NCBI GenBank assembly: GCA_020723385.1 | Contig: DYIZ01000040.1 | Coordinates: 1-42,119 of the forward strand | Direction: 5' to 3' | Length of the DNA: 42,119 bases | Source: Candidatus Aquidulcis sp. | Lineage (GTDB): Bacteria; Chloroflexota; Anaerolineae; Anaerolineales; UBA4823 | In this document: positions 5,835 through 37,506 of the stretch, piece by piece | Position numbering within the stretch: the first letter of the stretch is position 1 | Layout of the letters: each line of letters starts with the position of its first letter | Program-made: the position numbers and the translations under genes | The notes under the pieces: generated by a model | What the model saw: only the letters and a program-made list of their open reading frames with translations | Told to the model about the DNA's origin: nothing | The model's database searches: none

Positions 5835-8203
5835 CCCTTTCTACCGGACAAATTCTCAATAACCGCTACCGCATTGTCAAAAAGCTCGGACAAGGCGGTT
5901 TTGGCGCGGTCTACCGCGCCTGGGATGTGAATTTCAACCTGCCCTGCGCCCTCAAAGAAAATACCGAAACCACCTCCGAGGCCCAGCGCCAGTTCATGCG
6001 GGAGGCGCAAATCCTGCACACGCTGCGCCACCCCGGCCTGCCGCTGGTCAAGGATCATTTCATCATCCCGGAGCAGGGGCAATACCTGGTGATGGATTAC
6101 ATCGAGGGCGATGATCTCTCGCAGATCATGGAGCAGGCGGGCGGCCCTCTGCCCGAGACGCAGGCGTTGGCCTGGATTGCCCAGGTTTGCGACGCGCTCA
6201 CCTATCTGCACACGCAAAACCCGCCGGTGATCCACCGCGACATCAAACCGGCCAACATCAAGATCACCCCCCAGGGGCAGGCGGTGTTGGTGGATTTCGG
6301 CATCGCCAAAATCTACGATCCGGGCACGCGCACCACATTGGGGGCGCGCGCTGTCACGCCCGGCTACGCGCCGTTCGAGCAATACGGGCAGGCGCCTACG
6401 GATGCCCGCACCGATGTTTATGCCCTGGGGGCCACGCTCTACTCGATGTTGACCGGGCGCGATCCCGTGGAAAGCATCACCCGCATGGCCGGGACGCCGC
6501 TGGCCGAGCCGAGGTCGCTGAACCCGGCGATTTCAGCCAACACCGAAAAGGCGCTGCTGCACGCCCTGGCGGTCTACCCGAACGAGCGCTTCCAGACGGT
6601 GGCGGAGTTCCGGTCGGCGCTGGTGGGGACCGGCCCTTTGCCCCCTGTGCAGAAACCCGCTTCCGCGCCAATCATGGCGACGGTTATGCCGACGGAGGTC
6701 ATGCCGCAATCACCGGTAGTCGCTGCGCCTCCTGCCCACATCCAGCCGCCCCCGCCGCTGAGACCTGTAGCGCTGCCCGACTCTGAGCGGAAACGAGGCG
6801 CTCCCTGGATTTTGTTCGCTATCCTCGGAGGCGTGCTGCTTCTCGGGTTGGTTGGGGGTCTGGCTGGATTGGCATATCTTCTGTGGCCCAGGGCAGCCAC
6901 CCCCACTTCGATCGCGGTCGCGCCGACCCGAATCGCCACCGAGGAATTGAGACCCACTGAACCGCCCGCACTCTCGCCGTCCGCCACCCGCAGGCCGACC
7001 TCCCAACCCACGGCCCGGCCCACCTCCACCCAGACACCCATACTCGAAGGGCCGTCTCGCCTGACCACGATCACATTATGGGAGCAGGAAGGCGACGATG
7101 TGGATTATTTTATGGACGACCTGATCGCAGATTTTCAGGCGCGTTATCCCAATGTCCGCGTGGAGCGCCTTCACTACGAGAATGAAGCCTTGCGGGAGCA
7201 TTTCCTTATCGCTGTCGCGGCCGGCGCTGGCCCGGATTTGATCCGCGCGCCGGGCGATTTCGTCGGGCCGCTCAACGAGGCAGACAGTATTGCCCCAGCG
7301 AATCAGTATTTCGACCAGAAGCTGCTTTTCCAGTTCTATTCCGGCGCCCTCGATGCGGCACGGGTAGGCAACGTGCTGTGGGGCGTGCCAGATAACTACG
7401 GCAACCACCTCATGCTGCTGTACAATAAGGATTTGGTTCCCCAGGCACCGGTCACTTTCGATGAGATGAAAGCATTGGCAAGAACATTGAGAAAGGGCGA
7501 TTCGTATGGCCTCGCCTTCAACCTCAATGAGCCATATTGGGGGGCAGGCTTCTTTGGGTCATTCGGGGGCTGGCCTCTGGATATAAATGACAATCCCCAG
7601 TTCGACAATCAGGCTTTCATTGACTATCTTCACTTTGTCAAGTCGTTGAAAGACGAAGACATCGTTCCTCAGGAGTGTGACTATCCCTGCGCCGATTCGG
7701 GTTTCAGAGAAGGCCGCTTCGCCATGATCATCAACGGCGATTGGTCTTTGGCTGATTATTCGAATGTTTTCGGCGACCGGTTAGGCGTCGCGCCGGTTCC
7801 CGCCATCAACGGACATGTTTTCACCGAAATGACCTCCAGTAAATTTTATATGGTCTCGAAGGCCGCGTTAGATGATCCCGACCATAAGGCATCGGTGGAG
7901 GTGTTCGTCGAATACATGACCTCCGCCGATGTGCAGCGGCGCTGGCTGCACGAGCAAAAACGACTGCCGTCCAACAGAGCCGTCGCCGAGGATACCGTCA
8001 TCACCACCGATCCGGTGTTGGCTGGCTCGATGGCCGCGTTGGCCAACGGGCGCGGTATGCCAGCAGCCCCGGAGATGCGCTGCGCCTGGGATGCCTGGCG
8101 AACCAACCTGGAGGGCGTGATGGCTGGCTCGCTCTCTCCCGAATTTGCATCTGCCCAGGCGCAATCTGCCGCTGATGAGTGTGTGGCGGCATTGAGGAAA
8201 TAG
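5831..8203 (+). CDS. K3: Ser/Thr protein kinase fused to a family-1 solute-binding domain
   Basis: A 790-residue protein. The open frame continues upstream into K2, but the family start block ([16 protein letters not shown]) and the ATGA overlap place the start at 5831. The kinase domain is complete, with [17 protein letters not shown] and APFEQYG. A membrane helix lies at about 324-350 and a Thr/Pro linker follows. Residues about 408-790 begin TTITLWEQEGDDVDYFMDDL and keep the MalE/UgpB pattern: an N-terminal strand, a GAGPDLI segment, LLYNKDL, and a late FREGRFAMIINGDWS segment. The predicted role is an extracytoplasmic sugar or oligosaccharide sensor that controls the attached kinase. The TAG stop codon is the first three bases of a repeat element. 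The kinase subtype matches K1 and K6 (EAQRQF, LRHPGLP, EPVESI... here DPVESI). Confidence 0.93.
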   Translation: MTLSTGQILNNRYRIVKKLGQGGFGAVYRAWDVNFNLPCALKENTETTSEAQRQFMREAQILHTLRHPGLPLVKDHFIIPEQGQYLVMDYIEGDDLSQIMEQAGGPLPETQALAWIAQVCDALTYLHTQNPPVIHRDIKPANIKITPQGQAVLVDFGIAKIYDPGTRTTLGARAVTPGYAPFEQYGQAPTDARTDVYALGATLYSMLTGRDPVESITRMAGTPLAEPRSLNPAISANTEKALLHALAVYPNERFQTVAEFRSALVGTGPLPPVQKPASAPIMATVMPTEVMPQSPVVAAPPAHIQPPPPLRPVALPDSERKRGAPWILFAILGGVLLLGLVGGLAGLAYLLWPRAATPTSIAVAPTRIATEELRPTEPPALSPSATRRPTSQPTARPTSTQTPILEGPSRLTTITLWEQEGDDVDYFMDDLIADFQARYPNVRVERLHYENEALREHFLIAVAAGAGPDLIRAPGDFVGPLNEADSIAPANQYFDQKLLFQFYSGALDAARVGNVLWGVPDNYGNHLMLLYNKDLVPQAPVTFDEMKALARTLRKGDSYGLAFNLNEPYWGAGFFGSFGGWPLDINDNPQFDNQAFIDYLHFVKSLKDEDIVPQECDYPCADSGFREGRFAMIINGDWSLADYSNVFGDRLGVAPVPAINGHVFTEMTSSKFYMVSKAALDDPDHKASVEVFVEYMTSADVQRRWLHEQKRLPSNRAVAEDTVITTDPVLAGSMAALANGRGMPAAPEMRCAWDAWRTNLEGVMAGSLSPEFASAQAQSAADECVAALRK

Positions 8204-11435: not shown

Positions 11436-13601
11436 ATGCCACTCAACTCTGGTCAAATCCTGAACAATCGTTACCGCATCGTCAAATTGTTGGGGGAGGG
11501 CGGGTTTGGCGCGGTCTACCGCGCCTGGGATATGAATCTCAACGGCCCGTGCGCGGTGAAGGAAAACAACGAAACCTCCCCCGACGCGGCGCGCCAGTTC
11601 GCCCGTGAAGCCTCGCTGCTCTTCAATTTGCATCACCCCAACCTGCCGCGCGTCACCGATCATTTCACCGTGCCGGGGCAGGGTCAATACCTGGTGATGG
11701 ATTTTGTCGAGGGGGAGGATATGCAGGCGATGCTGACACGAGCGGGCGGCGCGCTGCCCGAGGAGCAGGTGCTGGCCTGGGTGGCACAAATTTGCGATGC
11801 GCTGGCCTACATGCACGCCCAGAACCCGCCCATCATTCACCGGGATATCAAGCCCGGCAATATCAAGATCACCCCGGATGGCCGCGCTGTGCTGGTGGAT
11901 TTCGGCATCGCCAAAGCCTACGATCCGAACCTCGCCACCACCCAGGGGGCGCGCGCCGTCACCCCGGGTTTTTCACCCCCCGAGCAATATGGGGAAGGCA
12001 AGACCGACGCCCGCTCGGATGTGTACGCCCTGGGGGCCACGCTTTATACCCTGCTCACCGGTCAAATCCCGGCATCCAGTGTGGACATCATCGCCGGGAC
12101 GTCGCCGCTGCCCAAACCGGTGACGGTGGTCAACCCGCAGGTCACCGCGAAAGTGAGCGACGCCATCACCCGGGCGATGAATCCCGGCCGGACGGGGCGC
12201 TTCGGCAGTGTGAGTGAGCTGCGCGCCGCCCTGGGCCTGCCGACCGCTCCCCTGGCGCGGCCCGCCTCCGCTCCCATCATGGCGACGGTGGCGGCGACGG
12301 AATCTGCCTCCAGTTTATCGTCGGCGACGCTGCTGGCTACCGAGCCGCCGCCAGCGAGACCGTTTTCCGCTGAACCGCCCTCGAAGCCGGAGAAGCGCAG
12401 ATCGCGTGGCTGGATCTGGGCGGCGGCGGGCGGGGTGGCGCTGCTGGTGGTGTGCGGCGCGCTGGTGGGCGGTTTCTTCGCCCTGCGCCCGCTGATTTTC
12501 CCGGTTGCAACCGAAGCGCCAACGGCGGTGATGCTGGTTCCCACCCAGCCCCCGGCCAAGCCGACCAATCCGCCTCCCGCCCCCACGGATGTTCCCGCCC
12601 CAACCGATGCGCCAACGGCTGTCCCACAGGCTGCCATCGTCAAAGTTGGATTGGTGACCGACACCGGCGGGATCAACGATAGATCGTTCAACCAATCGGC
12701 CTGGATGGGCGTGCAGAAGGCCGCAAAGGAATTTGGCTTCGAGGCGCGCTACATCGAATCCAAGCAGCCAACGGATTACGAGAAGAATATTGATCAGTTT
12801 GCGACCGAAGGCTACGATGTGATCATCACGGTGGGTTTTTTCATGGGCGACGCCACGGCGATCAAAGCCAGGCAATATCCCGATATTCACTTCGCGGTGG
12901 TTGACAATGCCTATTTCCCCACGACAGGCTATGCGGCCTGCCCGGACACTGTGAAAGACTGTTACGACGATGGCGGCCTGAGTAATGTGACCAGCCTGAT
13001 GTTTCAGGAGGATGAGGTGGGTTTCCTGGCCGGTGTGCTGGCGGCAGGCATGACCAAAACCGATGTGATCTGTTCGGTGTCGGGCATCGAAATCCCGCCG
13101 GTGGCGCGCTTCGTCACGGGGTACCAGAATGGAGCGAAATGGTTCCGGCCGGGCATCCAGACGCTCAATGTTTATATCCCCTCGTTCACCGACCCGGCCA
13201 AAGGCAAAGAGGTGGCAATCAGCATGATCGGCCAAAATTGTGATGTGATCTTTGGCGTCGGCGGCAATACCGGCAACGGCGGCCTGCTGGCGGCAAAGGA
13301 AAAAGGCCTGATGGCAATCGGTGTGGATGTTGACCAATATCTTACATACCCGGAGGTTGGCAGCGCGCTGATCTCCAGTGCAATGAAGAATGTGGATACC
13401 GCCGTTTATGAGTACTTGAAGATGGCATCTTTGGGCAAGACGAAGTCCGGCATCATCACCGCTAACCTACGTAATCGCGGGGTGGGATTAGCGCCGTTCC
13501 ATGACTGGGAAGGCCAGGTTCCGCCGTCTGTACTTGGGAAAATCAAAGAAGCGATTGATGGGCTGATCAACGGAACAATCAGTACCGGGTACAAACCTTG
13601 A
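11436..13601 (+). CDS. K5: Ser/Thr protein kinase fused to a BMP/PnrA-type nucleoside-binding domain
   Basis: A 721-residue kinase. The core is intact: GEGGFGAVY, K42, HRDIKPGNIKI (Gly in place of the usual Ala), DFGIAK and SPPEQYG. A membrane helix lies at about 324-352, starting RGWIWAAAGGVALLVV. Residues about 400-721 match the basic membrane protein family (Med, TmpC/PnrA): KVGLVTDTGGINDRSFNQSA, then a GYDVIITVGF segment, HFAVVDNAYF and GVDVDQYLT. Known members bind purine nucleosides or act as surface lipoproteins. Here the domain is tethered to a kinase instead of a lipid anchor, so it probably reports nucleosides (inference). AAGGA about 7 nt upstream supports the start. The N-lobe resembles K8, while the C-lobe resembles K7, so the kinase domain looks mosaic. 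Confidence 0.92.
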   Translation: MPLNSGQILNNRYRIVKLLGEGGFGAVYRAWDMNLNGPCAVKENNETSPDAARQFAREASLLFNLHHPNLPRVTDHFTVPGQGQYLVMDFVEGEDMQAMLTRAGGALPEEQVLAWVAQICDALAYMHAQNPPIIHRDIKPGNIKITPDGRAVLVDFGIAKAYDPNLATTQGARAVTPGFSPPEQYGEGKTDARSDVYALGATLYTLLTGQIPASSVDIIAGTSPLPKPVTVVNPQVTAKVSDAITRAMNPGRTGRFGSVSELRAALGLPTAPLARPASAPIMATVAATESASSLSSATLLATEPPPARPFSAEPPSKPEKRRSRGWIWAAAGGVALLVVCGALVGGFFALRPLIFPVATEAPTAVMLVPTQPPAKPTNPPPAPTDVPAPTDAPTAVPQAAIVKVGLVTDTGGINDRSFNQSAWMGVQKAAKEFGFEARYIESKQPTDYEKNIDQFATEGYDVIITVGFFMGDATAIKARQYPDIHFAVVDNAYFPTTGYAACPDTVKDCYDDGGLSNVTSLMFQEDEVGFLAGVLAAGMTKTDVICSVSGIEIPPVARFVTGYQNGAKWFRPGIQTLNVYIPSFTDPAKGKEVAISMIGQNCDVIFGVGGNTGNGGLLAAKEKGLMAIGVDVDQYLTYPEVGSALISSAMKNVDTAVYEYLKMASLGKTKSGIITANLRNRGVGLAPFHDWEGQVPPSVLGKIKEAIDGLINGTISTGYKP

Positions 13602-13726: not shown

Positions 13727-15166
13727 ATGCCCCTCAATACCGGACAAATTCTCAACAACCGCTACCGCATCGTCAAGAAACTCGGCGAGGGCGGGTTCGG
13801 CGCGGTGTACCGCGCCTGGGATACGACTTTCAACCTGCCGTGCGCGCTGAAGGAAAATATCGAGACCTCGCCCGAGGCGCAGCGCCAATTCGAGCGGGAA
13901 GCGCGGCTGCTGCGCGTGCTGCGCCATCCCAACCTGCCTTCGGTGAGCGATTATTTCATCGTTCCGGGGCAAGGCCAATACCTGGTGATGGATTTCGTCG
14001 AGGGGAAAGACTTACAGGTTATCCTCGAAGAGAATGGGACGCCCCTGCCCGAGGGTCAGGCGCTGGCCTGGGCGGCGCAAATCTGCGACGCGCTCGACTA
14101 CCTGCACTCGCAAAATCCGCCCATCATTCATCGGGATATCAAGCCCGCCAACATCAAGATTACCCCGCAGGGCCAGGCGATGCTGGTGGATTTCGGCATT
14201 GCTAAAGTGTACGATCCCAATGCGAAGACGACCCTGGGGGCGCGCGCCGTCACGCCGGGCTACTCGCCAGCGGAGCAGTATGGCCAGGGGACAACCGACG
14301 CCCGCTCGGACATCTACGCCCTGGGAGCCACGCTGTACGCCGCGTTAACCGGCCAGCAGCCCACCGAGAGTGTGCAGCGCACGGTGGGCATCACCATGCC
14401 GCTGCCGCGCGCCCTCAACCCGGCGCTATCCGATGCGGTGGAGGGCATCATCCTCAAAGCGATGGAAATGCTGCCTGCCCTGCGGTACCAGACGGCGCGT
14501 GAATTTCGGGCCGCGCTGGGGAAGCAGCAGGCTGTGACGCCTGCTGCGCCGCTTGCCGCGCCGCTCCCTGCGCCGCCTGCCGCTCCTGCTCGTCCGCCAT
14601 CCCAGCCGACGTTACCGCCCATTTCGCAGCCGCCATCCCGCGTGGGGTCTTCCCCGGTAGCTGCCCGTCCCACCGATTACACGCCCCCTCCACAGTCCGT
14701 TTCACCGGTTTACACGCTGCCGGTTGTAGCCGCCCCGGCCGCGCCGCGCAAAAAGTGGCTGCCGTGGGCGATATTCGGGAGCATTGTGATCGTGCTGCTG
14801 GCCGGTGGAGGATTGCTGGCCGGAGGCGGCGCGCTCTTGGCCCGGAAATCCACCGCTGCCCCGACGGCGACGTTTACTCCCGTGCCTGCCCTGGCGAGGC
14901 CCTCGCCGACCCAAACCGCCTCGCCCACCCGCACGGCGACCGCCAGCGCGACGCAGACGGCTACAATCGTGCCGACTTTCACCTTTACGCCGACCACAGC
15001 CTCAACCGATACACCCACAATGCCGCCGACCGCCAGCCCGACGGCGACGGCTACCGCGACGCGTACGCTGCGCCCTCCGACGCAGAAGCCGCCCACTCAG
15101 CCGCCGCCCACTCAGCCGCCGCAAGAGCCGCCCACAGACGAACCGCCGACGCCCGCCAACCCCTGA
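13727..15166 (+). CDS. K6: Ser/Thr protein kinase with a Thr/Pro tail and no sensor domain
   Basis: A 479-residue kinase, the shortest of the eight. The catalytic core is complete (GEGGFGAVY, K42, [24 protein letters not shown]). A Pro/Ala-rich linker leads to a membrane helix at about 344-370. The remaining roughly 105 residues are almost only Thr, Pro, Ala and Ser, ending in repeated PPTQ and PPT units. Where its paralogs carry a folded module, this one stops. The next gene starts 5 nt later and encodes a secreted propeller protein, so the sensor may be supplied in trans (inference). Loss of a module by deletion is the alternative. The kinase subtype is that of K1 and K3. The tail could span a cell wall or carry O-glycans. 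Confidence 0.92.
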   Translation: MPLNTGQILNNRYRIVKKLGEGGFGAVYRAWDTTFNLPCALKENIETSPEAQRQFEREARLLRVLRHPNLPSVSDYFIVPGQGQYLVMDFVEGKDLQVILEENGTPLPEGQALAWAAQICDALDYLHSQNPPIIHRDIKPANIKITPQGQAMLVDFGIAKVYDPNAKTTLGARAVTPGYSPAEQYGQGTTDARSDIYALGATLYAALTGQQPTESVQRTVGITMPLPRALNPALSDAVEGIILKAMEMLPALRYQTAREFRAALGKQQAVTPAAPLAAPLPAPPAAPARPPSQPTLPPISQPPSRVGSSPVAARPTDYTPPPQSVSPVYTLPVVAAPAAPRKKWLPWAIFGSIVIVLLAGGGLLAGGGALLARKSTAAPTATFTPVPALARPSPTQTASPTRTATASATQTATIVPTFTFTPTTASTDTPTMPPTASPTATATATRTLRPPTQKPPTQPPPTQPPQEPPTDEPPTPANP

Positions 15167-29188: not shown

Positions 29189-30073
29189 CTACCCTCCCAC
29201 CGCCGAATAGCGGCGCACACCCTGCCGCCACATCAGCGCCGACAGTCCGAGCGCCAGCGCCAGCCAGCCGAGCTGCACCGCAAAGCCCAGCGCCAGCCCG
29301 ACGGGATCCACCTGCCCGGTGAGTATCTCCACCGGGAAGCCGACCATATACCGGAAGGGCAGCGCCACAGCGGCGGAATGGAGCAGACCGGGCAGCAGCG
29401 CCACCGGCGCGACCTGACCCGCCAGCAGGAAAACCAGCGAATCCTGCACCGCCAGCAGCGCGTCGGCGCGGGTGGCCCAGAATGCCAACAGCGCCAGCCA
29501 GTACCCCCAAAAGAAGCGCAACGCCCACGCCAGCAGCAGCGCCGGGAGAAAAGCCAGCACGTTACCGGGGGTGAGGTGCATCTCCGGGCGCAGGATCAAC
29601 GCCAGCACGATCACCACCGGCAGATCGAAAGCCAGGTAAACCACTTTCCCGGCCAGCTCGCTGGACAATGCGTCGAACAACGGATGCAGCGGGCGCATCA
29701 ACAGGCGGTTCATCTGCCCGTAACGGATGAGATCGCCCACCGTCCAGTTGGTTTGCGAATAGGTGATCTGGTTGACCAATATCAACGCCAGGTAGTACGC
29801 CACGAACTCGCCGCGCGTCATCCCGCCGATGGCGCGCCCCCCGGCGGCGGTGGCCCACACCAGCAGGTAGATCAGCGGGGGGATCATCCAGCCAAAAGCC
29901 AGGATGAAGAAGAAACTGCGATATTGCAGCCAGGAAGCCCACGTCCCCCGGATCAGCGCCCACCCCCCGCGCAAATTCACCGAGGTTCGTAGTATGCGCT
30001 TTAGCGCAGAGAAAGGCGCTGAAGCGCCCACTACGAACGGCTTGCGAGATTTGCCCATTTGCTGATTTGTCAT
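29189..30073 (-). CDS. ABC-2 type exporter permease (DUF990-like), first permease
   Basis: A 294-residue membrane protein whose ATG overlaps the stop of the ATPase gene by 4 nt, which fixes the start and implies coupling. It has about six hydrophobic segments; GQMNRLLMRPLHPLFDALSS corresponds to the LRP-type cytoplasmic segment of the DUF990 family, and it ends MWRQGVRRYSAVGG, resembling its partner permease. The first roughly 35 residues are unusual: they include a stretch (about residues 13-30) encoded by a 54-nt palindromic repeat at 29985-30038. The conserved part begins at about residue 35 with GGWALIRGTWASWLQYRSFF. It forms the membrane pore with the second permease. Confidence 0.88.
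   Translation of the reverse strand: MTNQQMGKSRKPFVVGASAPFSALKRILRTSVNLRGGWALIRGTWASWLQYRSFFFILAFGWMIPPLIYLLVWATAAGGRAIGGMTRGEFVAYYLALILVNQITYSQTNWTVGDLIRYGQMNRLLMRPLHPLFDALSSELAGKVVYLAFDLPVVIVLALILRPEMHLTPGNVLAFLPALLLAWALRFFWGYWLALLAFWATRADALLAVQDSLVFLLAGQVAPVALLPGLLHSAAVALPFRYMVGFPVEILTGQVDPVGLALGFAVQLGWLALALGLSALMWRQGVRRYSAVGG
29985..30038. repeat. 54-nt palindromic repeat inside a coding region
   Basis: GTTCGTAGT (29985-29993) is matched by ACTACGAAC (30030-30038). Two hairpins lie within: GCGCTTTAGCGC (29996-30007) and GGCGCTGAAGCGCC (30015-30028). The length is a multiple of three, and the permease frame stays open through it, encoding VGASAPFSALKRILRT-like residues. Confidence 0.75.
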
Positions 30074-35773: not shown

Positions 35774-36532
35774 TTACGTTTGCCTGCGGATCGTCTCCTC
35801 TAGCAAACGGATGGCCTGGACGGCGCGCTGCTCCACATCGGTCAGGGTGGACAGCCAGCGGTCGTTGGCGGAGAGCACATCTTCATCCGGGCGGGGGGTA
35901 TCCAGCGCCTGGCGCAGATTTTCGGTTTGTCCCCGGTCGAATTGCAACAACATGCGCAGAACGGCCATGGCGCTGTACCCGCTGCGCATTAACATACGGA
36001 TCACGCGCAGGCGGCCGATTTCCGGCGCGCCGTAGAGCCGGTAGCCATTGTGGGGGTCGCGCGGCACGACGATCAACCCATTGCGCTCCCAGTTACGCAG
36101 GGAGTCGATGGTGGTGTTGAGCAGGCGGGCGGCATCGCCGATGCGCAGCTCGCGCCCGGCGGCTTCGGCGGGCGCGCCGCTGGCCCATCTTTCGAGGAAA
36201 GCCGCCGCAGCCTCAGCCTGGGCGCGCTCGGCCTGGATCAGCGCGACCAATTGATGGGCCATCTCCAGCGCGCCGCCCAGGTCGCCGCTGGCCGATTTCC
36301 TGACCAGCGCCAGCCCGGCCTGGCGGATGTTCTTTCCGGGCCAGCCGCCGTGCATGACGACGCGCGCCAGCCGCAACTGGTCGAGGTGCGCCACAGTGAA
36401 GCGCCGGTAGCCCTTGGGGCTGCGCGTCACTGGCGGGAGAAAGCCCCATGCTTCGTACAGGCGCACGGTGTTGGGGTGGATGCCCACGGCGCGGGCGAGA
36501 TCGGTGGTGCGGAGGTATTTCATGGGGGTCAT
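35774..36532 (-). CDS. MerR-family regulator with two DNA-binding domains
   Basis: A 252-residue regulator. Residues about 5-60 form one MerR winged helix (LRTTDLARAVGIHPNTVRLY, then GYRRFTVAHLDQLRLA). Residues about 128-185 form a second (LRIGDAARLLNTTIDSLRNW, then GYRLYGAPEIGRLRVI). Ordinary MerR proteins have one, followed by a coiled coil and an effector domain; here no separate effector domain is seen. The protein may bind as a pseudo-dimer or recognise two half-sites. The ATG at 36532 overlaps the stop of a broken upstream frame (ATGA); ATG at 36523 is an alternative. Neither has a good ribosome site, so translation was probably coupled to the lost gene. Target genes are unknown. Confidence 0.87.
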   Translation of the reverse strand: MTPMKYLRTTDLARAVGIHPNTVRLYEAWGFLPPVTRSPKGYRRFTVAHLDQLRLARVVMHGGWPGKNIRQAGLALVRKSASGDLGGALEMAHQLVALIQAERAQAEAAAAFLERWASGAPAEAAGRELRIGDAARLLNTTIDSLRNWERNGLIVVPRDPHNGYRLYGAPEIGRLRVIRMLMRSGYSAMAVLRMLLQFDRGQTENLRQALDTPRPDEDVLSANDRWLSTLTDVEQRAVQAIRLLEETIRRQT

Positions 36533-36657
36533 CGGGTCTTGCGCCAGTACAGCCAGGCAAAGATTTCCAGCCAGACGAAGTAGAACGCCATCAGCAACCG
36601 CTGGTGGATGCCGTAATAGCGATACCAGGCGTCGAACAGGCTGCCCAGGATCTTACG
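36529..36657 (-). pseudogene. C-terminal remnant of a lost membrane-protein gene
   Basis: On the minus strand 42 sense codons read like true protein, with GIHQRLLMAFYFVWLEIFAW as an aromatic membrane helix and WRKTR at the end. The TGA overlaps the MerR start. An in-frame TAG at 36658-36660 ends the open stretch, no plausible start exists and no protein-like sequence lies beyond. The family is not recognised. It was presumably the first gene of a two-gene operon with the MerR regulator. Confidence 0.5.
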
Positions 36658-36711
36658 CTAGTGGTGACTTTCTGCTAAAGATACGATATTATCTACTCAG
36701 CCACTCTTTGC

Positions 36712-36911
36712 CGCCGATTGAAATCGGCGTCTGATATAGCCAAAAACCTGCTGAAGCAGGTTTAAAATATTGGTGGCAACCCGCTTCAGCGGGTTTGAAT
36801 TTTTTAGGCATCGGATTCATCCGATGGCAGGCTGATCAGTTGCCCAGGTGGGATTGCTTATATCATAACTCGTAATTATTCCGCCTGTAATCCGCTGGCG
36901 ATTGAAATCGC
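36712..36911. repeat. Cluster of five short hairpins with TGAA/TTCA centres
   Basis: Five perfect palindromes follow each other: CGCCGATTGAAATCGGCG (36712-36729), AAACCTGCTGAAGCAGGTTT (36744-36763), AACCCGCTTCAGCGGGTT (36778-36795), CATCGGATTCATCCGATG (36809-36826) and GCGATTGAAATCGC (36898-36911). Stems differ, the centre is always TGAA or its complement TTCA. The remaining bases of the 36661-37071 gap show no gene and no promoter I can support. Confidence 0.75.
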
Positions 36912-37071
36912 TGCAACGGCAGCTAAAGAACAGCCGGTTGCAAATCCCCATCCTTCGTTACACTCAGGACAGGTACTTTGTGGGGTTCAGTCCACCGAAG
37001 GGCGGACTTTGCAGGTGTTGGTGCAGTTTCAACTGCCGAAATGGGGCTGGCTGAGCAATTACCATAAGTTC

Positions 37072-37506
37072 TTAGCGCAATCTACTTGGGTCATTCCATA
37101 AAATTCGTTCTTGCTTACGCCATAAGAGCAGCAACAGCCCTGAAAAGATCGGAGGCGAATAGTAATCATTTTTCTCTTTGACCCAAACACCGTTGCGTAA
37201 AAATTCAACTCTCCAGTGATATGCTACTCCTGCTCTGCTGATTTCATGTAAACGTGCTTCTCCGCGTAGACCAGCCTGAAATTTCGGGATTGCTTTTTCT
37301 TTATTCAAGCCATAATCAACCCAAGCCCCAAAAACCGGAACAACCTCCTGAATAGCGTCAACCAATTTAACCGCGAAACCATTATCTGTACTCGAAGGAA
37401 CACAGATGGACGAATCGGTTCGTTCGATTGCTAGTCGGGGAAACTCATGCCGTAGATCAGCCTCGAGTTTATCAATAAGCGGACTGGAGAGGTTTTTCCT
37501 GGTCAT
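37072..37506 (-). CDS. Hypothetical protein
   Basis: A 144-residue protein I do not recognise. It starts MTRKNLSSPLIDKLEADLRH. A mid-segment KAIPKFQAGLRGEARLHEIS and WRVEFLRNGVWVKEKNDYYS suggest a small alpha/beta fold. The C-terminal FSGLLLLLWRKQERI is hydrophobic but too short to be a sure membrane helix. It lies 15 nt after the next small gene in the same direction, so the two are probably co-transcribed. Both are AT-richer than the flanking DinB-like and MerR genes, which hints at acquisition. No ribosome site is visible, so the start is uncertain. A role as an immunity or effector protein is possible but nothing shows it. Confidence 0.65.
   Translation of the reverse strand: MTRKNLSSPLIDKLEADLRHEFPRLAIERTDSSICVPSSTDNGFAVKLVDAIQEVVPVFGAWVDYGLNKEKAIPKFQAGLRGEARLHEISRAGVAYHWRVEFLRNGVWVKEKNDYYSPPIFSGLLLLLWRKQERILWNDPSRLR

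What the first reader, a model, noticed from the sequence alone, without database searches (positions are those of the whole stretch)
36712..36911. Hairpin cluster with constant TGAA centre and unrelated stems
Seen: five palindromes of 14-20 bp differ in stem sequence but all centre on TGAA or TTCA. A sixth, GGCGCTGAAGCGCC, sits in the permease gene at 30015-30028. Conservation of the centre with freely covarying stems is unusual for a copied repeat and suggests selection on shape plus centre, such as recognition by a REP-type transposase or an RNA-binding protein.
Basis: seen in the sequence. Interest (0 to 1): 0.65.

Follow-up and report, generated by a model that had tools for sequence, protein, structure and literature searches.

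The report
Mobile DNA hairpins sharing one loop
The hairpins are parts of small copied DNA elements that a single-strand DNA transposase probably recognises by a four-base loop rather than by the stem sequence, and the loop differs between branches of that enzyme family.

Summary
In detail: five palindromes at 36712-36911 centre on TGAA/TTCA. In 1.50 Mb of this genome that centre occurs 35 times (arm at least 6), against 3.3 +/- 1.8 in shuffles.

The hairpins belong to two adjacent copied elements. Element 1 (about 36710-36826) has four hairpins; 14 full-length copies exist in the genome. Its stems are conserved between copies, so they do not covary freely. Element 2 (about 36897-37041) is a second family. 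The 'sixth' hairpin is half of a GTAG-tagged REP doublet.

Three-hairpin cassettes related to element 1 flank a Y1 transposase gene in this genome. The protein passes NCBI's IS200/IS605 model, not RAYT, and has the Y---Q--HH signature of TnpAY1 'subclass 1.2', described as generally lacking terminal structures.

In the genome's phylum (probably Chloroflexota) one branch of these transposases is flanked by TTNA-centred hairpins, another by CTNC. A prediction written before fetching new loci held: majority class right in 36 of 57 and 21 of 24 loci, wrong in 0 and 1, undecided in 21 and 2. TTNA matches the in vitro loop requirement of a Marinomonas TnpA-REP. Mobilisation is inferred, not shown.

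The parts
36710..36826 (.). Element 1: tnpA-less (MITE-like) element of four hairpins, outer-inner-inner-outer; borders good to a few bases
   Evidence: 34 BLAST matches in the own genome, some of them sub-matches within one copy; 14 full-length copies counting this one. Of the other 13, 12 begin at query 10-14 (36709-36713) and all 13 end at 125-136 (36824-36835)
36712..36729 (.). Hairpin 1, outer left: CGCCGAT-TGAA-ATCGGCG
   Evidence: folds as ssDNA
36731..36734 (-). Guide-like NNAG (TCAG, read on the minus strand) one base 5' of hairpin 1 read as TTCA
   Evidence: sequence; in clade I loci TAG lies within 9 bases 5' of 43 of 145 TTNA hairpins, against 7 of 145 on the other strand
36744..36763 (.). 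Hairpin 2, inner left: AAACCTGC-TGAA-GCAGGTTT
36778..36795 (.). Hairpin 3, inner right: AACCCGC-TTCA-GCGGGTT; also the one terminator-like site of the region
36804..36807 (+). Guide-like NNAG (TTAG) one base 5' of hairpin 4
   Evidence: at the same place in copies TTAG, ATAG, TCAG, CGAG or GCAG
36809..36826 (.). Hairpin 4, outer right: CATCGGA-TTCA-TCCGATG
36897..37041 (.). Element 2: second repeat family; outer TGAA/TTCA hairpins, inner CTNC-type hairpins that are clear in several other copies
   Evidence: 15 matches in the own genome counting itself, best other 92% over query 13-157
36898..36911 (.). Element 2 outer left hairpin GCGAT-TGAA-ATCGC
36989..37008 (.). Element 2 inner hairpin AGTCCACC-GAAG-GGCGGACT (one mismatch), centre of the CTNC class
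   Evidence: perfect 8-bp stems at this place in L329, L331, L332
37023..37036 (.). Element 2 outer right hairpin GCAGT-TTCA-ACTGC
29989..30034 (.).

Best explanation
The cluster is two neighbouring non-autonomous mobile elements made of hairpins that, as single-stranded DNA, are read by Y1 (HUH) transposases of the IS200/IS605 superfamily. Shown: element 1 is a dispersed repeat of four hairpins, and relatives of it flank a Y1 tnpA gene. Shown: in the genome's phylum, hairpins beside one branch of these transposases mostly have the centre TTNA and those beside another branch mostly CTNC, with many stems and a variable third position. Inferred: the transposase binds folded single strands (as known for IS200/IS605, on the lagging-strand template), checks the loop (T at position 2, and the identity of positions 1 and 4) and the pairing of the stem, uses the 5' NNAG as guide, cleaves and rejoins the strand, and so copies or moves tnpA-less units in trans. 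The constant centre is then the recognition signal. The stems need only pair, and differ because the four hairpins and the families arose separately.
For: Dispersed copies. Loop bases T, T and A are invariant at all four hairpins in 14 copies; only the N position varies (1 of 14 at the inner left hairpin, 3 of 14 at the inner right). Stems are 94-100% conserved against 67% for spacers and 51% for flanks. A Y1 tnpA in the same genome sits between two three-hairpin cassettes with centres TGAA, TTAA, TTCA and GTAG 5' of the right outer hairpin. One cassette matches element 1 (E 4e-4), and solo three-hairpin copies L324/L326 bridge the two forms. Training set: clade I 144 of 168 hairpins TTNA (48 of 62 loci), clade II 73 of 111 CTNC (24 of 26 loci). 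Hold-out, prediction written first: clade I TTNA majority 36 of 57, CTNC majority 0; clade II CTNC majority 21 of 24, TTNA majority 1. Distance control: clade I TTNA 140 in 47.1 kb within 400 bp of the gene against 6 in 72.7 kb beyond 600 bp. The 5' tag is strand-specific. In vitro precedent for TTNA with a free stem: PMC8266576.
Against: No transposition, excision or binding was shown. The genome's tnpA cassettes share the inner stem with element 1 but not the outer stems, so a cognate pair is likely, not proven. In the hold-out 21 of 57 clade I loci have no TTNA majority (15 have no 4-nt hairpin at all, 6 have neither class). The predicted 'all four bases at N' failed there: TTAA was 0 of 140, though 13 of 144 in training. 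Some clade I loci have 3-nt loops instead (e.g. L204, L228, L416). 15 of 111 (training) and 16 of 109 (hold-out) clade II hairpins are TTNA. Among copies of element 1, departures from the main pair are 19 broken, 3 wobble and only 2 compensatory of 406 pair cells. With loops of 3-5 nt allowed, GTAG-tagged hairpins in the own sample are led by GCC (10) and GGC (9), ahead of TTTA (8) and TTCA (5) of 107. Clade supports are weak (0.62 and 0.38). No clade II transposase was recognised among the six Y1 matches of this genome.
Confidence: 0.75

Rival explanations
1. The hairpins act mainly as RNA: transcription terminators or 3'-end stabilisers between the gene ending at 37072 and the MerR-like gene starting at 36532, kept for that role.
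For: They lie between predicted genes. The element folds strongly as RNA (z -6.2). Hairpin 3 is scored as terminator-like, 1 found in 36400-37200 against 0.7 +/- 1.0 in shuffles. In 12 of 14 copies the inner right stem ends in a run of 4-5 T, in the others 2-3. REPs are known to do this (passage of PMC6006769).
Against: It does not explain why the centre is the same in unrelated stems, why it follows the transposase branch, or why the hairpins pile up within 400 bp of tnpA. It could hold as a side effect of the first explanation.
Confidence: 0.12
2. These are decayed ends of ordinary IS200/IS605 (subclass 1.1) insertion sequences, with no special loop rule.
For: The transposase passes NCBI's IS200/IS605 model, and its nearest solved relative is ISHp608 TnpA.
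Against: The Y---Q--HH signature is in 58 of 62 clade I and 24 of 26 clade II training proteins but 0 of 6 IS608-like ones. Of the contigs with a match to element 1 only C176 also has a Y1 match. The loop class follows the branch in a hold-out.
Confidence: 0.1
3. Chance palindromes plus base composition.
For: Single short palindromes do occur by chance; W 1603-1618 and L025 10933-10948 may be such.
Against: 35 against 3.3 +/- 1.8 in shuffles; dispersed copies.
Confidence: 0.01

Closest known systems
TnpAY1 subclass 1.2 (Quentin et al. 2018, PMC6006769; section on it read)
   Same: Y---Q--HH motif, close to IS200 TnpA, low copy number of the gene
   Different: [quoted passage not shown] Here 48 of 62 clade I and 24 of 26 clade II loci have class hairpins, in a phylum that is probably Chloroflexota.
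REPMb / TnpA-Mb of Marinomonas sp. MWYL1 (PMC8266576; Results read)
   Same: Loop T12-T13-N14-A15 with N free; stem must pair but its sequence matters little; last two bases of the 5' guide matter most with a CT site
   Different: That enzyme is a group 3 TnpA-REP with GTAG; here the protein is IS200-like, element 1 carries four hairpins, its tags are loose NNAG, and another branch uses CTNC.
GTAG REPs, REPtrons and TIRtrons (Di Nocera et al. 2013, PMC3733652; two sections and passages read)
   Same: Short hairpins with a 5' unpaired motif, dimers and clusters, TY loops, stem variants, double palindromic TIRs beside Y1 genes; Chloroflexi named among the phyla with GTAG repeats
   Different: In the parts I read: no report of loop class following transposase branch, or of TTNA/CTNC arrays beside Y---Q--HH proteins
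IS608 and ISDra2 (IS200/IS605)
   Same: Y1 HUH transposase; a T in the hairpin loop is contacted (PMC8266576 discussion)
   Different: Subterminal hairpins at the left and right ends of a unit with its own gene (PMC6006769 passage); no tnpA-less four-hairpin unit that I know of (recalled)

Membership tests
RAYT / REP-associated tyrosine transposase (NF047646) | protein passes the curated RAYT model | tested here: not met
   22.9 bits, cut-off 80
RAYT / GTAG REP | GTAG directly 5' of the hairpin | tested here: inconclusive
   element 1 has TTAG/TCAG; GTAG is present at the right outer hairpins beside tnpA in L001/L143 and at the doublet 29989-30034
IS200/IS605 family | Y1 transposase passes the family model, HUH plus Tyr | tested here: met
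   83.3 bits, cut-off 55; Pfam Y1_Tnp 88.8 bits; DHLH and Y---Q in the sequence
IS200/IS605 family | excision and insertion beside a fixed tetranucleotide | not testable with these tools
   needs empty sites or an assay
TnpAY1 subclass 1.2 | Y---Q--HH signature | tested here: met
   P0001 has YVEAQKRHH; training: 58 of 62 clade I, 24 of 26 clade II, 13 of 13 clade III, 0 of 6 IS608-like; hold-out: 50 of 57 and 22 of 24
TnpAY1 subclass 1.2 | generally no typical terminal secondary structure | tested here: not met
   48 of 62 clade I and 24 of 26 clade II loci have class hairpins within 400 bp. The paper says 'generally'; its other features (C-terminal domain, its own HMMs) were not tested
REPIN / MITE | dispersed, tnpA-less, inverted hairpin units in many copies | tested here: met
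   34 BLAST matches, 14 full copies on both strands
REPIN / MITE | mobility shown | not testable with these tools
   only 2 of 37 other genomes of the family have a match, both partial; this fits recent spread but is not proof

The most novel reading that the evidence does not exclude
Y---Q--HH ('subclass 1.2') transposases are active REPtron-like systems with a loop code. The second loop base is T, the third is free or nearly so, the first and fourth are set by the enzyme branch (T..A in one, C..C in another), and the stem need only pair. If so, the code can be read from genome sequence alone and switched by changing the enzyme.
Probability: 0.48. Interest if true: 0.72.

Novelty: new variant of a known kind. 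Interest (0 to 1): 0.57.

Why it matters
A subclass of single-strand transposases that was reported as generally lacking recognisable DNA structures turns out, in this phylum, to come with hairpin arrays whose loop class can be predicted from the protein branch. That gives natural support to a loop rule that I know only from one in vitro SELEX study. It offers two branches (TTNA and CTNC) in which the residues that read the loop could be mapped by swaps. It may also explain other hairpin clusters in these genomes.

Tried and rejected
Tried and rejected. Rfam at gathering scores on the window: no match. Synteny with L027 to find an empty site: of five window proteins only the AraC-like one matches, so no empty site. 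Covariation within element 1 as proof of pairing: 2 compensatory against 19 broken cells, not used as support. Tag-selected test: with CCGGA[GT]T 7 of 13 hairpins are TTCA or TTTA (reversed tag: 1 hairpin, other centre); with CGGA[GT]T 9 of 26 against 2 of 14 for the reversed tag; with GGA[GT]T 14 of 82 against 2 of 37 listed; with GTAG 13 of 107, behind GCC and GGC taken together. I call this weak. Plasmid records for a cross-phylum test: 371 records, all under 60% identity; the 40 listed were not followed. The one genome-contig scan went to the AraC-like gene and helped little. Terminator scan: see the first rival.

Rows dropped. Of 147 training loci 134 had a Y1 hit, 125 were non-redundant and 116 entered the tree (score >=80, length >=100); 28 of these lie outside clades I and II. 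Of 110 loci given to the hold-out script, 27 were duplicates of training or of each other, and 2 more (L349, L354) were >=95% identical to training. Near relatives among these 81 were not collapsed: 13 pairs are 80-95% identical. Clades were defined after seeing the flanks in the training set, which is why the hold-out was made.

Full report
What is there. The five palindromes are real and at the stated coordinates. In the window 5 of 20 perfect palindromes with a 4-nt centre and arm >=6 are TGAA/TTCA; 300 order-1 Markov shuffles give at most 1. I took 80 stretches of the same genome, which with the window make 1,502,469 of 6,434,379 bases. There TGAA/TTCA is the commonest of all centres: 35 of 622 at arm >=6, next 14, against 3.34 +/- 1.82, maximum 8, in 100 shuffles. 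Together the TTNA centres (TTCA, TTTA, TTGA, TTAA) number 55, against 9.7, maximum 20. The best relative of the one window protein scanned against named genomes is an Anaerolineae MAG (58% identity, next 42%), so 'probably Chloroflexota' is an inference from one protein.

Two elements, not one cluster of free hairpins. BLAST of 36700-36835 against the whole genome gives 34 matches, some of them sub-matches within one copy. Fourteen are full-length: the query itself and 13 others at 75-85% identity. In 12 of the 14 all four hairpins are perfect at arm >=5 and in the same order: outer TGAA, inner TGAA (TAAA in one), inner TTCA (TTTA in three), outer TTCA. L310 and L318 have a broken inner left stem. 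Over these 14 copies the T, T and A of every loop are invariant and only the N position varies. Mean stem conservation is 94-100% per hairpin, spacers 67%, flanks 51%. So each stem is a fixed part of a copied repeat. Departures from the main base pair are 19 broken, 3 wobble and 2 compensatory of 406 cells, so compensation is not the evidence here. Two further copies (L322, L323) have an insertion in the right outer hairpin. Of 37 other genomes of the same family only two have a match, both partial, so the family is close to private to this genome. The hairpins at 36898-36911 and 37023-37036 are the outer pair of a second repeat (15 matches counting itself, best other 92%). Several of its other copies show inner hairpins centred CTCC, CTTC, GAAG, CTGC, GCAG or GTAG, i.e. 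the CTNC class met below. The hairpin at 30015-30028 is the right half of a GTAG-tagged REP doublet, tags outside, with 5-bp stems, 2-nt spacers and TTTA/TTCA loops. It lies inside the first codons of the permease reading frame 29189-30073, or before its true start if that is a downstream GTG or TTG. In the own sample GTAG-tagged hairpins with a 4-nt centre are 44 of 4084 oriented hairpins (arm >=5), and TTTA (8) and TTCA (5) are the commonest among them. When 3- to 5-nt loops are allowed, GCC (10) and GGC (9) come first of 107.

A transposase of the right kind. The genome has six Y1_Tnp matches. One (L001, protein P0001) lies between two three-hairpin cassettes, each outer TGAA, inner TTAA, outer TTCA, with GTAG before the right outer hairpin. 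A cassette matches element 1 at E 4e-4. Solo three-hairpin copies with outer stems like element 1's and the TTAA inner hairpin (L324, L326) link the two forms. P0001 passes the IS200/IS605 model (83.3 bits, cut-off 55) and fails the RAYT model (22.9, cut-off 80). Its best matches among solved structures are ISHp608 transposase (2a6m, 2vhg and others) and 2xm3/2xqc, which I recall as ISDra2 TnpA. It has the Y---Q--HH signature, a distinctive feature of 'subclass 1.2' in PMC6006769 (section read). The other five Y1 matches are of other kinds or fragments.

Loop class follows the enzyme. From searches in relatives, order and phylum and the own genome, 147 loci gave 125 non-redundant Y1 genes; 116 entered a tree. 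In clade I (62 loci, local support 0.62) 144 of 168 hairpins with a 4-nt centre and arm >=6 within 400 bp are TTNA, with N = C 68, G 32, T 31, A 13 and 64 distinct inner 6-nt stems; 48 of 62 loci have at least one, and 3 of 62 have a CTNC hairpin. In clade II (26 loci, support 0.38; most proteins with 'TWDR') 73 of 111 are CTNC, in 24 of 26 loci, and 15 are TTNA, in 4 loci. At least some of these TTNA hairpins look like outer hairpins around an inner CTNC pair (L241; L430), as in element 2. Fisher tests on loci give p 1e-7 and 4e-16, but loci are related and the classes were seen first. So I wrote a prediction before fetching 60 new regions by rank; 21 further new loci came. Loci were assigned by HMMs made from the training set. 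57 new clade I loci gave TTNA majority 36, CTNC majority 0, no 4-nt hairpin 15, neither 6. 24 new clade II loci gave CTNC majority 21, TTNA 1, neither or tie 2. By hairpins: clade I 140 TTNA, 0 CTNC, 24 other; clade II 80 CTNC, 16 TTNA, 13 other. The closest protein to the training set is 82% identical. One part of the prediction failed: not all four bases were seen at N in clade I (TTCA 72, TTGA 38, TTTA 30, TTAA 0). Distance control on the training set: clade I TTNA 140 of 164 within 400 bp (47.1 kb) against 6 of 36 beyond 600 bp (72.7 kb); clade II CTNC 75 of 112 (20.1 kb) against 12 of 28 (17.4 kb). Stem information over training and hold-out is 0.17-0.84 bits per position in clade I (108 distinct stems of 189) and 0.5-1.91 bits in clade II (29 of 90), so 'free stem' is true of clade I and only partly of clade II. 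The 5' side is strand-specific: TAG in 43 of 145 clade I hairpins against 7 on the other strand, CGAA in 28 of 91 clade II hairpins against 3.

How it probably works. In PMC8266576 (Results read) the Marinomonas TnpA-Mb needs T12, T13 and A15 of a TTTA loop and does not care about N14. A swap of its whole stem to the complement had a moderate effect and a mismatch a serious one. Its guide's last two bases, AG, are the ones strongly selected with a CT site. The natural pattern here, T-T-N-A loops, diverse paired stems and NNAG guides, is the same rule. The same paper's discussion (part 1 read) says that IS608 and ISDra2 TnpA contact a T in the hairpin loop. I infer that clade I TnpA binds folded single-stranded hairpins through the loop, that the second-position T is the common contact, and that positions 1 and 4 are read by branch-specific residues. 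Cleavage, rejoining and trans-mobilisation of the tnpA-less elements are inferred from the family, not shown. A role as transcription terminator is not excluded: hairpin 3 scores as terminator-like (1 found, 0.7 expected), and in 12 of 14 copies its stem ends in 4-5 T.

What is known and what is new. REPs beside Y1 genes, TY loops, stem variants and double palindromic TIRs are known (PMC3733652, two sections and passages read). Subclass-specific REP types are known for class 2 proteins (PMC6006769, section read). [quoted passage not shown] Seven searches of the held library listed no paper whose title or abstract start links Y---Q--HH transposases or Chloroflexota with such hairpins. For papers other than these three I saw listings only, no search used the loop motifs as terms, and most subscription journals are not held. 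I therefore call it a new variant of a known kind.

Limits. The genome is a draft (95.6% complete, 4.5% contamination, 239 contigs), and no clade II transposase was recognised in it to match element 2. Clade supports are weak. Some clade I genes have 3-nt loops. No empty site was found.

Noticed in passing
own-genome sample, e.g. L145:7408-7458, L126:1470-1521, L137:1027-1074: A further doublet family with outward tags: CCGGA(G/T)T-hairpin(TTCA)-short spacer-hairpin(TGAA)-A(C/A)TCC; stems vary (gcaggc, gcgggc, gcagac, gcggac, gcggcc)..
   Followed up: partly
flanks of L281, L283, L285, L290 (proteins with TYSQIYIQVVFAVK near the start): A third Y---Q--HH branch has 3-nt loops on GACCCC-like stems. 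All 16 with inner arm CCC/CCT fit GNN in one orientation (9 of 12 with other arms), like the G13 requirement of the S. maltophilia REP (PMC8266576). About 44% would fit by chance, and the hairpins are related copies.
   Followed up: partly
L322 and L323: Two copies of element 1 carry a 17-nt, partly palindromic insertion at the right outer hairpin.
   Followed up: no
window 5903-5920, 11508-11525, 13799-13816: Three near-identical perfect palindromes GGCGCGGT(C/G)TACCGCGCC within 8 kb.
   Followed up: no
L004 (C74 end), L005 (C95 end): Two contigs of the draft genome end inside very similar IS608-like tnpA starts, as expected where a multi-copy insertion sequence breaks an assembly.
   Followed up: no
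window 29989-30034: A REP doublet lies within the first codons of the predicted ABC permease frame, next to the ATGA overlap with the ATPase gene; either an in-frame insertion or a wrong start codon.
   Followed up: partly
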